Shown here piece after piece: positions 51,455 to 57,112 of a stretch of 64,000 bases of DNA (positions are counted from its first letter, which is position 1; each line of letters opens with the position of its first letter). The stretch lies in the NCBI GenBank assembly GCA_017616015.1, contig JAFZYY010000006.1, forward strand, positions 124,001 through 188,000, in the 5' to 3' direction. A program made the position numbers and the translations under genes. The notes under the pieces were generated by a model. That model was not told the origin of the DNA. It saw only the letters and a list, made by a program, of their open reading frames with translations, and searched no databases. This DNA comes from Alphaproteobacteria bacterium (lineage in GTDB: Bacteria; Pseudomonadota; Alphaproteobacteria; CAAGCB01; CAG-977).

Positions 51455-53959
51455 ATGACTAATAAAATCGCTCTTACAGCATCAATGCGTTCCAACCTGC
51501 TCAGCCTGAAAAACACGCAGAGCCTGTTGGATAAGACACAAGACCGTTTGTCCACCGGTTACAAAGTTAACAGCGCTATGGACAACCCGTCTTCCTACTT
51601 CACCGCTCAGGCTTTGAACTCCCGCGCCGACGACTTGTCCGGTTTGTTGGACAGTATCGGTCAGGCGATTTCCACGCTGCAAACGGCGGACCAGGGCATT
51701 ACGACGCTGCAAAGCTTTGTTGAACAGGCGAAGTCCATTGCGAACAACGCGCGTGACACGTCCAACGTCCCGTCGAAGGCGACAACGGACAGCGTGAAGT
51801 TCAATCCCGACACCGCCAGAACCGATCTGGTTTCCGAATACGTCGATCTGACGGCCGGTCCGGCGCCGAAATCCATTCTCGGCAACGCGGCTCTTGCCGC
51901 CGATGACAAACTGGTCGCCGATTTAAATCTGACCGCCGGTCAGACGATTGACTTTACGGTAGGTGATGACGCCGCCGTCAGCGTCGCTGTTGCGGCTGAC
52001 GACACGGTCGAATCCTATATGGCTAAAGTGGTCGATGCCGTCGGTTCCGACAAAATCAAAGCGGAATTGGTTGACGGCAGTCTCAAATTCTCGACGGTGA
52101 ACAGCGCCGACCTGAAGATTGAATCCGCCCGCGACACAGAATCGCACGCGACGAAAACGTATACATTCGCTAACACCGACGACGTCAGCGGATGGGCCGC
52201 TGGTGTTGCTCTTACCACGGGTGACGGCACCTCGACTTTCAACGTCGATTTGTCCGGTGTGGCCGCTACACAAGCAGCTACCGGCGTCGGCGCACATTTA
52301 GCGGACGACGAACTCGAAGCTGCGGCTGCGGCGTATGCAGCTGCGATTAACGCTGCGGCTGAGACGGCCGGTGAAAACATCGTTGCGACAGCCGACGGCG
52401 CTACCGTGACGATTAAGGATCTGACGCTGGGCAATGACGCTGCGGCTCCTTCCATGGCGACCGGTCCGGCAACTGCTGCGGCTGGTCCTAATGTGGGCGT
52501 CCCCATACCCGGAACTTCCGCTGCCGAATTGCTCGGTTTTTCCAGCAACAAGGTAGAAGGTTCGGCCGAAGCCGGCAATTCGTTCTCCGTCCGTTTGGGC
52601 GATGCGACGAAGATGACCGGTACCGCGAACCTGCGCGCCGACAAGACGCTGGAGGAAATGGGCATGACTGACGGTCAGTCGATCGACATCATCGTCGGCG
52701 ACGACATTCACACCTACACCATCGGCAAGGAAATCGACAAGACTTCCACGATGCAGCAGTTCATGGACGACATCGTCTATGACATCGGTCGTACGAAGAT
52801 CAAAGCCGAAATCGTTGACGGTACTCTGTCCATCAGCACGTTGGATAACAGCTCGCTGGATATCCGCTCGACCAGTGCGGTCGAAGCGCGCGATGCGATA
52901 AAGATTGCAAAAGGCGAATTCGGTGTTGCCGACCGTACGCTGACGAACGTTGTGGTCACGCCCGACGGCGGATCCGCGACGACTGTCGATTTGACGGGTA
53001 TCGAAACCGCTGAAGGCGTTGCCGACGCGATCAACAATAATGCCGACCTCAAAGCGGCTGGCGTTATGGCGAAAGTGGACGTTAACGGAAACGTGGCCAT
53101 CTTCGACAAGAACGGAGATAACGCCGCTCCGACCATTACGTTCAACGCTGACGACAACGGTACTCCTTATATCAGCGCCGGTGTCGCGGGTAAAACGGAC
53201 TATGAATTGAAGGGTACGTCCTTCAATGAACTCGTCGGTTTTGAACCCGCTCAGAAAGTTGAAATCACGCAAGACATGACGGTTGAAAAATTCCGTCAGG
53301 CCATCAACAATCTGGAAGGCGTCTCCGCCGACTTCGACACGAAGGGTCATCTGATCATTTCGGGCGAACAAGGCGACGACCTGGTCATGGTCAACGATGC
53401 CAACAGCAACGTGTTGAAAAACCTGTTCGGTAACGACGTCGTTTCCGCGACCAACGGTTCGAACGAACGCGCCGTCTACGCCAAACAGTTCGACGACATT
53501 CTGACCCAGATCGACGAATTGGTTCAGGATACGTCCTACAAAGGCATCAACCTGTTGAACGGCGACAGCCTGTTAGTGAACTTCAATGAAAGCCGTACAA
53601 GCTCTCTGAACATCAAAGGCGTGACCTTTGACTCCGTCGGCTTGGGCTTCACCCGTTCCGCTAACGAATGGATTTCGAACACAGACATCGACAACGCTTT
53701 GAACCAAATTTCCAAAGCGACCTCGATGCTGCGTGCTCAGGCTTCTGAATTCGGTCAGAACCTGTCCACCGTTCAGATCCGTGAAGACTTCACTCAGAAC
53801 ATGATTAACAACCTGCAGTCCGGTGCCGATAAACTGACACTGGCCGACATGAACGAAGAAGCGGCGAACATGCTGGCTCTTCAGACACGTCAGCAGTTGG
53901 GCGTCAACTCTTTGTCGATGGCTTCTCAGGCTACGCAGAGCGTGTTGAAACTGTTCTAA
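51455..53959 (+). CDS. Flagellin, long form with duplicated central domain
   Basis: The 834-residue filament protein has conserved D0/D1 ends: TASMRSNLLSLKNTQSLLDK and LSTGYKVNSAMDNPSSYFTA at the N-terminus, MLALQTRQQLGVNSLSMASQ and QSVLKLF at the C-terminus. The central region is surface-exposed and acidic, with two related units: GQTIDFTVGDD...DKIKAELVDGSLKFSTVNSA (about residues 155-225) and GQSIDIIVGDD...TKIKAEIVDGTLSISTLDNS (about 410-475). It lacks Cys. It is exported by the flagellar type III system and ends at a terminator identical to that of flagellin 2. Confidence 0.95.
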   Translation: MTNKIALTASMRSNLLSLKNTQSLLDKTQDRLSTGYKVNSAMDNPSSYFTAQALNSRADDLSGLLDSIGQAISTLQTADQGITTLQSFVEQAKSIANNARDTSNVPSKATTDSVKFNPDTARTDLVSEYVDLTAGPAPKSILGNAALAADDKLVADLNLTAGQTIDFTVGDDAAVSVAVAADDTVESYMAKVVDAVGSDKIKAELVDGSLKFSTVNSADLKIESARDTESHATKTYTFANTDDVSGWAAGVALTTGDGTSTFNVDLSGVAATQAATGVGAHLADDELEAAAAAYAAAINAAAETAGENIVATADGATVTIKDLTLGNDAAAPSMATGPATAAAGPNVGVPIPGTSAAELLGFSSNKVEGSAEAGNSFSVRLGDATKMTGTANLRADKTLEEMGMTDGQSIDIIVGDDIHTYTIGKEIDKTSTMQQFMDDIVYDIGRTKIKAEIVDGTLSISTLDNSSLDIRSTSAVEARDAIKIAKGEFGVADRTLTNVVVTPDGGSATTVDLTGIETAEGVADAINNNADLKAAGVMAKVDVNGNVAIFDKNGDNAAPTITFNADDNGTPYISAGVAGKTDYELKGTSFNELVGFEPAQKVEITQDMTVEKFRQAINNLEGVSADFDTKGHLIISGEQGDDLVMVNDANSNVLKNLFGNDVVSATNGSNERAVYAKQFDDILTQIDELVQDTSYKGINLLNGDSLLVNFNESRTSSLNIKGVTFDSVGLGFTRSANEWISNTDIDNALNQISKATSMLRAQASEFGQNLSTVQIREDFTQNMINNLQSGADKLTLADMNEEAANMLALQTRQQLGVNSLSMASQATQSVLKLF

Positions 53960-54045: not shown

Positions 54046-54136
54046 GCACTCCCCGTGCGGGGGTCACTTTTTTATATCGTCATTGCGAGGCACGTTAGTG
54101 CCGAAACAATCCGTTTTTTGCCGCTTTTCCCGCCCC
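54046..54136. repeat. Dispersed palindrome-type repeat, left flank
   Basis: Contains GTCACTTTTTTATA then CGTCATTGCGAGGCAC (54078-54093), which recurs at 54926-54956 on the right of the tandem repeats. CGTCATTGCGAGG with GGATTGCTTCGTCGC is a repeat pair seen in many bacterial genomes. No gene is seen. Confidence 0.65.
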
Positions 54137-54216
54137 GTGGATTGCTTCGTCGCGATGACAAGCCTGCATGACCGCCAGACTTGACAAAGCGGGATATAAA
54201 CGTATATCATAAATTA

Positions 54217-54285
54217 TCTACACTAAAGAAATTTAGAAAGCAAAGGGGCTTGGGTGCGCTAACACCGAAAGCCCCTTATTCTTTA
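54217..54285 (+). ncRNA. Predicted antisense RNA A
   Basis: TTGACA (54181-54186) and TATCAT (54205-54210), 18 bases apart, form a plus-strand promoter. A transcript would enter the hairpin at 54242-54277 (outer stem AAAGGGGCT/AGCCCCTT, inner GGTG/CACC), then ATTCTTT. Its 3' end would overlap the end of the peptide mRNA made from the other strand. If it reads through, it is antisense to the whole peptide. Confidence 0.5.
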
Positions 54286-54372
54286 CCAAGCTGATTTAGT
54301 CATACCCAGTAAAAGAATTACGACCAACAAAGTCAGCCGTATGCTTTTCTTCACTAAAGAAATTTTAATCAC
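54283..54372 (-). CDS. Small hydrophobic peptide A, candidate type I toxin
   Basis: A 29-codon frame from GTG, ending IRLTLLVVILLLGMTKSAW, TAA. It has a basic N-terminus and one hydrophobic stretch of about 12 residues, then a short polar tail ending in Trp, like Ibs/Fst/Ldr toxins that insert into the inner membrane. GAAAGGCAG lies before the GTG; the spacing is short and the start codon is uncertain. A conserved TATAGT (complement of 54429-54434) may be its -10 box. A hairpin follows the stop as a likely terminator. Confidence 0.5.
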   Translation of the reverse strand: MIKISLVKKSIRLTLLVVILLLGMTKSAW

Positions 54373-54565
54373 CTGCCTTTCAGACTGAAGACAGTCGATT
54401 GCCGTTCAAAAGCACAAACGGCGGAAACACTATATCCGTCCGGATATAAAAAGAAAAGTCGGAAGTACCGCCCTGTGGATTGCTTCGTCGCGATGCTTCT
54501 CGCAATGACAAGCCTGCATGACCGCCAGACTTGACAAAATCAGAAAGAAAAGTTACATTAAGAAT

Positions 54566-54628
54566 GTAACGTACTAATGTAAAAGCAACGGGGCTAAGGT
54601 GTTGGCGCACCCAAGCCCCGCATTTTTT
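54566..54628 (+). ncRNA. Predicted antisense RNA B
   Basis: TTGACA (54531-54536) and TACATT (54554-54559), 17 bases apart, form the equivalent promoter in copy B. The transcript would run to the hairpin CGGGGCT (54589-54595) / AGCCCCG (54614-54620), which is followed on the plus strand by CATTTTTTA, a proper terminator. The RNA would be about 60 bases and stop at the last codon of peptide B. Confidence 0.5.
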
Positions 54629-54716
54629 ACCAGACTGATTTTGTCATGCCCAGTAAAAGAATTACGACCAACAAAGTCAGCCGTATGCTTCTTAGTAACA
54701 TACTAATGTCAATCAC
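54627..54716 (-). CDS. Small hydrophobic peptide B, candidate type I toxin
   Basis: The copy-B equivalent of the peptide at 54283, also 29 codons from GTG, ending IRLTLLVVILLLGMTKSVW. Over 18 codons from AGC to TCA the two copies differ at two bases, both synonymous (ACT/ACA and GGT/GGC), while N-terminal codons and untranslated parts have diverged. A better-spaced ATG at codon 6 (AGGTGA 11 bases upstream) would give 24 residues. Purifying selection on the peptide is suggested but rests on few changes. Confidence 0.5.
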   Translation of the reverse strand: MIDISMLLRSIRLTLLVVILLLGMTKSVW

Positions 54717-54850
54717 CTGCCTTTCCGTTAGATTGACAGTCGATTGCCGTTCAAAAGCATAAACGGCGGAAACACTATAACCGTCCGGATATAAAAAGAA
54801 AAGTCGGAAGTACCGCCCTGTGGATTGCTTCGTCGCGACGCTCCTCGCAA

Positions 54851-55289
54851 TGACAAAGGAAGGGTTGTCCCCGCACGGGGAGTGCTTGCTTCGCTGACGC
54901 GCGCAATGACTACTGCCGTAGGGGCGTCACTTTTTTATACCGTCATTGCGAGGCACTATCCTTGCAAAAACAATTTCGAAAAAATGTCTTTTGCTTCGAA
55001 CGAAATTAATCCGACTCCAAACAAAACAATAAACTTCAAATAACACAAGGCCGAATATTTCCGCCTTGTTTTTTTATTTAAAATTGAATAATAAAACAAA
55101 GTTTAAACTAAAAACTAAAAATCAAAATAAAAAAAACAAAATAATTTTTACAGTATAAAATCATTAAGAATCAAAAAGATATTTAAAATAATACTACGTT
55201 TTACATAATAAGTATTTTAAGTATTTGTTTTTATTTATTGAACAATACAAATATAAATGATAGCTTTATTTGTAATGGAAAAGTAAAAC
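54851..55289. other. Right flank and AT-rich gap upstream of flagellin 2
   Basis: Holds repeat relics (CCCCGCACGGGG at about 54872, the GTCACTTTTTTATA and CGTCATTGCGAGGCAC pair at 54926-54956), then a very AT-rich stretch from about 55060 to 55285. The flagellin 2 promoter should lie at its end near ATGATAGCTTTATTTG (55257-55272). No gene is supported. Confidence 0.55.
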
Positions 55290-55375: not shown

Positions 55376-57112
55376 ATGGCTAATAAAATTGCTCTTACAG
55401 CGTCTATGCGCTCCAACCTGCTCAGCCTGAAGAACACTCAAAGCTTATTGGATAAAACTCAGGATCACCTGTCCACCGGTTACAAAGTGAACAGCGCGAT
55501 GGACAATCCGTCGTCCTATTTTACCGCTCAGGCTTTGAATTCCCGCGCCAATGACCTGTCCACTCTGTTGGACGGTATCGGTCAGGCGATTTCAACATTA
55601 GAAGTGGCCGATAAAGGCATTACGACTTTGCAGGACTTCGTCGAACAGGCAAAATCCATCGCACAGTCCGCCCGCGACACATCTAACGTTTCGGCTAACG
55701 TCGCTTCTAACGTACGATTTGATCTGGATACTTTGCGCTCCGAATTGGTTACAAACACCGTTAACGGTGTTGCCGCAAACGACACCATGAAAATTCGCGT
55801 CGGTGATTCCACAAAATTAACCGGCACGTCAAACGTTCGTGACGACGCGGCTATCGGTACAGGCGGCTTCGGATTGACAGGAGCAAACGTCGGCATTCTG
55901 ACGGTTGACGGAACACAATACGTCATCAACGCGTCAACCACGACTGAAAAAATGACGACTGCAACCTTTGAATACAACGCGAACGACAAACTGGTCGTTT
56001 CAAATTACGACGGCACCGCCGGAACAATGACGTTGACCGACGCCGACGGAAATGTATTTGAAGGAGTCTCCACAGGCGGCGTGTCCTTTGTAGACGGCGA
56101 AACCGCAACGCATACCGGCGATTTCTCGATTTCCGCTACAATCACTGCGGACGGAAAGACGGAATGGCAGGTCAGCGCGGCTCTTGCCGCCGACAGCGCG
56201 ACAGCAGCCGTCGGAAGCGCTACCGTAACCGAAGCAAACACAATTTATGTGGACAACTCCGGTACGGTCGCCGATATGGCCAGAACAATTCAGAACATGA
56301 TCGGCAATACCAAGATCAGCGTTTATACTGAAGACAGCAATCTGATTATCAAAACATTGGATACAACCTCTGTCGAAGTAACGGCCGGCGCCTTTGCTAC
56401 CCAATTCGGGTTGGACGTCGGAACGGAAATCTCGCTTGACGCGACCGATACGGCTGAATCTCTGCGCCAGAAAATCGCCGGCATTGACGGCGTCACCGCC
56501 GAATTCGATAAAGACGGCCATCTGGTCATCAAATCCGAACAAGGTGACGATCTGGTCATTTCCGGAAAATTGGCCGACGGACTTGGCGTTTCCGGCGCCG
56601 CAACCAACGGCTCGAACGAACGCGCCGCTTACGCTAAACAGTTCAACGGTATCATGACGCAGATCGATGAATTGGTTCAGGATACGTCCTACAAAGGCAT
56701 CAACCTGCTGAACGGTGATAACCTGACCGTGAACTTCAATGAAAGCCGCACCAGTTCTTTGGAACTGAAAGGCGTTACGTTCAACTCCATCGGGTTAGGC
56801 TTCACAGCCGCCGCAAACGAATGGATCGACAACGCCAGCATTGACAAATCTTTGGATCAAATCACCAAAGCGACCTCGATGTTGCGTGCTCAGGCTTCTG
56901 AATTCGGTCAGAACCTGTCCACCGTTCAGATCCGCGAAGACTTCACGGAGAAAATGATAAACAACTTGCAAACCGGCGCCGATAAACTGACGCTGGCCGA
57001 CATGAACGAAGAAGCGGCAAATATGCTGGCTCTTCAGACACGTCAGCAGTTGGGCGTTAATTCTCTGTCAATGGCTTCGCAGGCTTCTCAGAGCGTGTTG
57101 AAACTGTTCTAA
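55376..57112 (+). CDS. Flagellin, shorter form
   Basis: A 578-residue flagellin whose ends are almost identical to those of the 834-residue protein (SMRSNLLSLKNTQSLLDKTQ; MLALQTRQQLGVNSLSMASQ). The central region is different and Thr/Ala/Asp-rich, with one flagellin-IN-like segment ESLRQKIAGIDGVTAEFDKD and the shared SYKGINLLNGD. The two genes are ancient tandem duplicates with separately evolved surface domains. Same leader and terminator as gene 1. Confidence 0.95.
   Translation: MANKIALTASMRSNLLSLKNTQSLLDKTQDHLSTGYKVNSAMDNPSSYFTAQALNSRANDLSTLLDGIGQAISTLEVADKGITTLQDFVEQAKSIAQSARDTSNVSANVASNVRFDLDTLRSELVTNTVNGVAANDTMKIRVGDSTKLTGTSNVRDDAAIGTGGFGLTGANVGILTVDGTQYVINASTTTEKMTTATFEYNANDKLVVSNYDGTAGTMTLTDADGNVFEGVSTGGVSFVDGETATHTGDFSISATITADGKTEWQVSAALAADSATAAVGSATVTEANTIYVDNSGTVADMARTIQNMIGNTKISVYTEDSNLIIKTLDTTSVEVTAGAFATQFGLDVGTEISLDATDTAESLRQKIAGIDGVTAEFDKDGHLVIKSEQGDDLVISGKLADGLGVSGAATNGSNERAAYAKQFNGIMTQIDELVQDTSYKGINLLNGDNLTVNFNESRTSSLELKGVTFNSIGLGFTAAANEWIDNASIDKSLDQITKATSMLRAQASEFGQNLSTVQIREDFTEKMINNLQTGADKLTLADMNEEAANMLALQTRQQLGVNSLSMASQASQSVLKLF

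What the first reader, a model, noticed from the sequence alone, without database searches (positions are those of the whole stretch)
54137..54850. Candidate new type I toxin-antitoxin family in tandem copies between two flagellin genes
Each 340-345-base repeat encodes on the minus strand a 29-codon peptide with a hydrophobic core and a Trp end. Over 18 codons the copies differ only by two synonymous changes. A hairpin follows both stops, and its outer pair changes from A-U to C-G between copies, a compensatory change. A plus-strand TTGACA promoter faces each hairpin, so the two transcripts converge on a shared terminator. Tandem repeats, tiny membrane peptides and convergent RNAs are known for Ibs/Sib, Ldr/Rdl and Fst/par loci; I do not recognise this peptide.
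Basis: partly seen in the sequence, partly recalled or inferred. Interest (0 to 1): 0.85.

Follow-up and report, generated by a model that had tools for sequence, protein, structure and literature searches.

The report
RNA-guarded toxin peptide genes, twin copies
Two side-by-side mini-genes between flagellin genes of a gut alphaproteobacterium each appear to make a tiny membrane peptide, probably toxic, silenced by its own matching small RNA; they belong to an undescribed family in which every copy carries its own private RNA 'key', so that duplicated copies should not silence each other.

Summary
Each repeat is a convergent gene pair: a ~190-nt minus-strand mRNA for a 26-29-residue one-helix peptide, and a ~70-nt plus-strand RNA, sharing one hairpin terminator. 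Its sequence differs between the copies but matches within each. Profile searches found 12 complete loci and one remnant in 8 of 12 genomes of the family (three genera), in unrelated chromosomal contexts, and none in about 380 other sampled Alphaproteobacteria, viruses or plasmids. Across all 12x12 combinations each short RNA pairs best with its own mRNA (mean -21.5 against -9.7 kcal/mol). The mRNA fold is conserved with covariation and hides the ribosome site. This is the anatomy of par/Fst (RNA I/RNA II), but the peptides lack the Fst/Ldr signature and match no Pfam, NCBIfam or Rfam family. Best reading: a new type I toxin-antitoxin family that works like par. The twins look insulated by replaced repeats and an inverted terminator loop. 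Transcription and toxicity remain untested.

The parts
54236..54424 (-). Copy 1 toxin mRNA (predicted, ~189 nt)
   Evidence: Covariance-model span; consensus fold
54286..54372 (-). Copy 1 toxin frame from GTG (29 codons; TAA at 54283-54285); alternative AUU start at 54363
54369..54380 (-). Copy 1 Shine-Dalgarno stretch AAAGGCAGGTGA, sequestered by the upstream CUGUC
   Evidence: Consensus fold, helix 2
54401..54422 (-). Copy 1 5' upstream helix GCCGUU...AACGGC
   Evidence: Consensus fold, helix 1
54429..54434 (-). Copy 1 toxin promoter -10 (TATAGT); -35 about 16 nt upstream, weak
   Evidence: Alignment of loci
54352..54365 (-). Copy 1 direct repeat over the toxin start (plus strand CACTAAAGAAATTT)
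54221..54234 (+). Copy 1 direct repeat in the 5' arm of the antitoxin RNA (CACTAAAGAAATTT)
54245..54275 (.). Copy 1 bidirectional terminator hairpin; antitoxin loop CGCTAA
54181..54210 (+). Copy 1 antitoxin promoter TTGACA...TATATC/TATCAT
54216..54285 (+). Copy 1 antitoxin RNA (predicted, ~70 nt)
   Evidence: Promoter and terminator positions
54581..54769 (-). Copy 2 toxin mRNA (predicted)
54630..54716 (-). Copy 2 toxin frame from GTG (29 codons; TAA at 54627-54629); alternative AUU start at 54707
54695..54709 (-). Copy 2 direct repeat over the toxin start (plus strand GTAACATACTAATGT)
54566..54580 (+). Copy 2 direct repeat in the antitoxin arm (GTAACGTACTAATGT; 14/15 identical to its partner, unlike copy 1)
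54590..54619 (.). Copy 2 bidirectional terminator hairpin, inverted relative to copy 1; antitoxin loop TTGGCG
   Evidence: (I2)
54531..54559 (+). Copy 2 antitoxin promoter TTGACA-17-TACATT
54774..54779 (-). Copy 2 toxin promoter -10 (TATAGT)

Best explanation
Two tandem chromosomal type I toxin-antitoxin modules of a previously undescribed family, working like par (RNA I/RNA II) of plasmid pAD1. The minus-strand mRNA encodes a 26-29-residue single-helix membrane peptide. A 5' upstream helix caps the mRNA and a second stem hides the ribosome-binding site; a pairing between the codons after the start and the 3' tail closes the coding domain. The ~70-nt plus-strand RNA comes from a consensus-like promoter and ends at the same hairpin. 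It would first touch the mRNA through the complementary terminator loops, then its 5' arm (the direct repeat) pairs 12-17 nt over the start region, the one stretch the mRNA leaves open, and blocks translation. If the antitoxin RNA is lost or falls, the peptide is made and damages the inner membrane. Shown here: the anatomy, the within-locus matching of the repeats in 12 loci, the conserved mRNA fold, and the distribution. Inferred: transcription, order of binding, toxicity, membrane target. The two tandem copies are ~92-97% identical in toxin core and toxin promoter but ~50% identical in both repeats, and one terminator loop is inverted, so each antitoxin should silence only its own toxin.
For: Within-locus direct repeats: 6x6 test, cognate -16.5 to -21.0 against non-cognate -2.7 to -8.8 kcal/mol, the identity pairing being the single best of 720 permutations. 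12x12 test: cognate mean -21.5, non-cognate mean -9.7 (sd 3.9); identity is the optimal assignment and 12/12 antitoxin arms prefer their own mRNA. Conserved mRNA fold with SD-sequestering stem and open repeat target; 12 pairs with two-sided changes, 0/500 shuffles as high. Homologs in three genera. Hydrophobic, net positively charged peptides. Copy comparison: repeats 48-52% identical against 92-97% in core and toxin promoter. par anatomy from PMC7472228.
Against: No transcript or toxicity data. The promoter scan is not above shuffles. L008 carries a toxin frame shifted between start and core, and L013 is a remnant. The start codon is ambiguous. Part of the conserved pairing in the coding region could reflect codon constraint. 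Only six fairly close sequences underlie the covariation counts.
Confidence: 0.83

Rival explanations
1. The peptide is a non-toxic small membrane protein (regulator or signal) under antisense control; the module is an antisense-regulated gene, not a toxin-antitoxin pair.
For: Toxicity is untested. Positions next to flagellin, mutL-like, truB-like and other housekeeping genes would suit many roles.
Against: Tandem and multi-copy state, unrelated neighbours, patchy presence within the genus, decayed copies (L008, L013) and tight antisense control with SD sequestration are typical of type I toxin loci (established knowledge).
Confidence: 0.12
2. The peptides are true, highly diverged members of the Fst/Ldr superfamily, so this is par itself in a new phylum.
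For: Same gene layout, RNA sizes and folding elements as par (PMC7472228); Trp near the C-terminus in most members.
Against: No Pfam match for any of 10 members even at E<=10. Trp (or Tyr, Gln, Met) is the last residue with no charged tail after it, and no P/D/S/TxxxG motif within the hydrophobic core of the window copies.
Confidence: 0.1
3. A mobile repeat (MITE/REP-like) with a chance open frame and terminator hairpins.
For: Flanked by TCATTGCGAGG...CAATCC repeat units; tandem copies.
Against: The TGCTTCGTCGCGATGAC unit occurs once in the genome with one mismatch allowed; frame, SD, repeats and fold are conserved in loci without these flanks.
Confidence: 0.03

Closest known systems
par (Fst RNA I/RNA II) of pAD1 and chromosomal par loci of Firmicutes
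   Same: Convergent promoters, shared bidirectional terminator, direct repeats crossing the translation start, 5' upstream helix and SD-sequestering stem, ~200-nt mRNA with a short antisense RNA, paralogs insulated by divergent repeats (PMC7472228).
   Different: Peptide without the PxxxG motif and charged tail; Alphaproteobacteria; repeat lies mostly downstream of the SD in the window copies; extra pairing between the codons after the start and the 3' tail; two conserved hairpins inside the coding region.
Ibs/Sib (E. coli)
   Same: Tiny hydrophobic peptide; repeated loci; specific recognition domains (PMC4147584).
   Different: Sib covers the whole ibs frame and RBS on the opposite strand; here overlap is only the terminator and recognition is by displaced direct repeats. 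A resemblance of the peptide ends is from memory only.
Ldr/Rdl (E. coli)
   Same: Small membrane peptide and ~60-nt antisense RNA in repeated loci.
   Different: Rdl overlaps the 5' leader, not the RBS or start (PMC4147584); no shared terminator or direct repeats known to me.
Zor/Orz and Lpt/RNA II
   Same: 29-residue single-helix toxins; tandem duplication (Zor) (PMC8309996).
   Different: Different organisms; RNA anatomy not compared directly here; no family match of the peptide in Pfam or NCBIfam.

Membership tests
Type I toxin-antitoxin system | Small hydrophobic peptide gene | tested here: met
   25-32 residues, best 15-residue hydropathy 2.4-3.1 in all 11 complete peptides
Type I toxin-antitoxin system | Antisense RNA complementary to the toxin mRNA start region | tested here: met
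   Sequence level: cognate duplexes in 12/12 loci; transcription itself not shown
Type I toxin-antitoxin system | Toxicity of the peptide, relieved by the RNA | not testable with these tools
   Needs expression experiments
par-type regulation (RNA I/RNA II) | Convergent promoters and shared bidirectional terminator | tested here: met
   (sequence level)
par-type regulation (RNA I/RNA II) | Direct repeats read in opposite directions over the translation start | tested here: met
par-type regulation (RNA I/RNA II) | 5' upstream helix and stem sequestering the SD | tested here: met
   Helices 1 and 2 of the consensus
par-type regulation (RNA I/RNA II) | YUNR U-turn in the toxin terminator loop | tested here: inconclusive
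   By eye: UUAG/UUGG in c1, L008, L009; absent from the toxin loop in c2, L010, L012 (sequences). The review says not all par loci have it
Fst/Ldr peptide superfamily | Trp between the TM helix and a charged C-terminus; P/D/S/TxxxG in the helix | tested here: not met
   Aromatic or other residue is last, no tail; no Pfam hit at E<=10
Ibs/Sib | Antitoxin overlapping the whole toxin frame | tested here: not met
   The antitoxin promoter points into the shared terminator 3' of the frame
Any Rfam antitoxin RNA family | Match to a curated covariance model | tested here: not met

The most novel reading that the evidence does not exclude
A new type I toxin-antitoxin family whose toxins start at a non-canonical AUU/AUA codon (strong SD AAAGGAGGU plus 7 nt to AUU in L039 and L071; the same position in the window copies), and in which tandem duplicates were made mutually blind both by replacing the direct repeat on both sides and by inverting the terminator loop that would start the RNA-RNA contact.
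Probability: 0.4. Interest if true: 0.8.

Novelty: new variant of a known kind. Interest (0 to 1): 0.7.

Why it matters
par-type antisense control in a family of Alphaproteobacteria, with a peptide not related to Fst by sequence search, suggests that this wiring arose more than once or travels independently of its toxin. The 12 loci are a natural set of orthogonal RNA-RNA pairs on a nearly constant scaffold. The tandem twins show how a duplicated toxin-antitoxin locus could escape cross-protection, which bears directly on why bacteria keep several type I copies.

Tried and rejected
Membership in a named protein family: no hit in Pfam, NCBIfam, PHROGs or PADLOC; the only PDB match is a chance-level stretch. 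Rfam: none. Plasmids, phages, IMG/VR: none. GTDB contigs: one hit, identical to a locus already found. Weak model hits L041, L046, L048 and L051 were read and rejected as coding sequence without frame, repeats and terminator; L072, L073 and L075 likewise. The idea that the element is a dispersed REP/MITE was dropped. A joint alignment with one sequence on the wrong strand was discarded. One of the seven queries was a stray letter string of mine, not from any locus; it is ignored.

Full report
What was checked. The repeat at 54137-54850 is real: direct repeats with 338-350-nt spacing, present only here in the genome, in two full copies plus a short fragment. The promoter scan by itself is not above shuffled sequence, so the case cannot rest on it.

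The feature that decides the matter. In copy 1 the plus-strand word CACTAAAGAAATTT occurs at 54221-54234, just after the predicted antitoxin start, and again at 54352-54365, over the toxin's start codons. In copy 2 the same two places hold GTAACGTACTAATGT and GTAACATACTAATGT. The word thus differs between copies (48-52% identity over these regions) and matches within each copy, whereas toxin core, toxin promoter and antitoxin -35 region are 92-100% identical. This also explains why only the first codons of the two peptides differ.

Related loci. A DNA search of the genus gave five more places in other genomes: four full loci, each with its own word (L008, L009, L010, L012), and one remnant, L013. 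A covariance model of the six mRNAs and a peptide profile then reached other genera of the family. Reading the hits gave L038, L039, L040, L049, L071 and L077, again each with a private repeat. In all there are 12 complete loci and one remnant in 8 of 12 genomes of the family. About 380 evenly drawn genomes of the class outside this family had none, nor did plasmids, phages or viral contigs. One relative is a sheep-rumen metagenome-assembled alphaproteobacterium, RGIG6957. Neighbours are unrelated chromosomal genes: mutL-like, a Crp-type regulator, an autotransporter-like gene, a metallo-hydrolase, a permease, truB-like (Pfam for some; the rest recognised by eye).

Test of the antisense mechanism. 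With six loci, all cognate duplexes are -16.5 to -21.0 kcal/mol and all 30 non-cognate ones -2.7 to -8.8; the identity pairing is the best of 720. With twelve loci and uniform 45-nt stretches, the cognate mean is -21.5 against -9.7 (sd 3.9), identity is the optimal assignment, and every antitoxin arm prefers its own mRNA; in 11 of 12 columns the mRNA also prefers its own antitoxin. For two loci (L010, L049) at least one of 500 shuffles reaches the observed energy, so the strength is in the set, not in each single locus.

mRNA fold. The consensus has a 5' helix, a stem that buries AAAGGCAGGUGA, an open stretch that holds the repeat target, a pairing of AAAAGCA after the start with the 3' tail UUGCUUUU, two hairpins in the frame, and the terminator. 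Twelve of 62 pairs change on both sides while staying paired; 0 of 500 shuffles match this or the covariation score, and slid structures collapse. Six related sequences are few, and the structure was derived from them, so this is supportive rather than conclusive.

Insulation of the twins. The copy 2 terminator is inverted relative to copy 1 (I2). Cognate loops pair at -5.6 and -7.6 kcal/mol, crossed loops at -1.8 and -2.3; an un-inverted copy 2 loop would pair with antitoxin 1 at -5.3. Together with the exchanged repeats this would make each antitoxin blind to the other toxin. That selection caused it is inference from one pair.

Start codon. Codon 1 (GTG; ATG in L040) sits on top of the SD-like stretch. 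Codon 4 (AUU, AUA; GTG in L038) lies 7-9 nt behind it. In L039 and L071 a perfect AAAGGAGGU is followed after 7 nt by AUU, with GTG inside the SD, so AUU initiation is the better reading there; L049 and L077 use ATG. L008 has one base fewer between start and core and is probably a dead toxin.

Comparison. The layout is that of par of pAD1: convergent promoters, bidirectional terminator, direct repeats over the start, 5' helix, SD-burying stem, and paralogs kept apart by divergent repeats (PMC7472228). The peptide fails the Fst/Ldr signature and has no Pfam match, so it works like par without being shown to be Fst. Ibs/Sib and Ldr/Rdl differ in layout (PMC4147584). A 2025 paper gives the known range of type I systems as Proteobacteria, Firmicutes and Tenericutes before its own cyanobacterial case (PMC12390103); I found no paper in the held library describing a par-like system in Alphaproteobacteria, but key papers (T1TAdb; a 2010 survey) are not held.

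Verdict. A real, new family of par-like type I toxin-antitoxin loci, with strong sequence evidence for the antisense mechanism; transcription and toxicity are predicted, not shown.

Noticed in passing
L038:1973-2404, L039:972-1391: Small helix-turn-helix proteins (weak HTH Pfam matches) lie directly upstream of the toxin gene and in the same direction in these two loci; a similar protein seems to lie near L077 and in L051. Possible third partner or a coincidental multi-copy gene.
   Followed up: partly
window 54087-54160, 54468-54500, 54813-54956: TCATTGCGAGG...CAATCC / GGATTGCTTCGTCGCGATGAC inverted repeat units flank the tandem array and are part of the duplicated unit; similar units occur in G003 (L011, L014). 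Perhaps the vehicle of the duplication.
   Followed up: partly
L045:1501-1670 (L013 locus): A decayed copy: toxin core and terminator remain, but SD, start region and direct repeat are gone.
   Followed up: partly
L035:1501-1685 (L008 locus): Toxin frame broken by one base between the start region and the core while both direct repeats stay matched: a possible antitoxin-only locus.
   Followed up: partly
window 51455-53959 and 55376-57112: The two flanking flagellins share nearly identical ends but have very different, long middle regions (834 and 578 residues).
   Followed up: no
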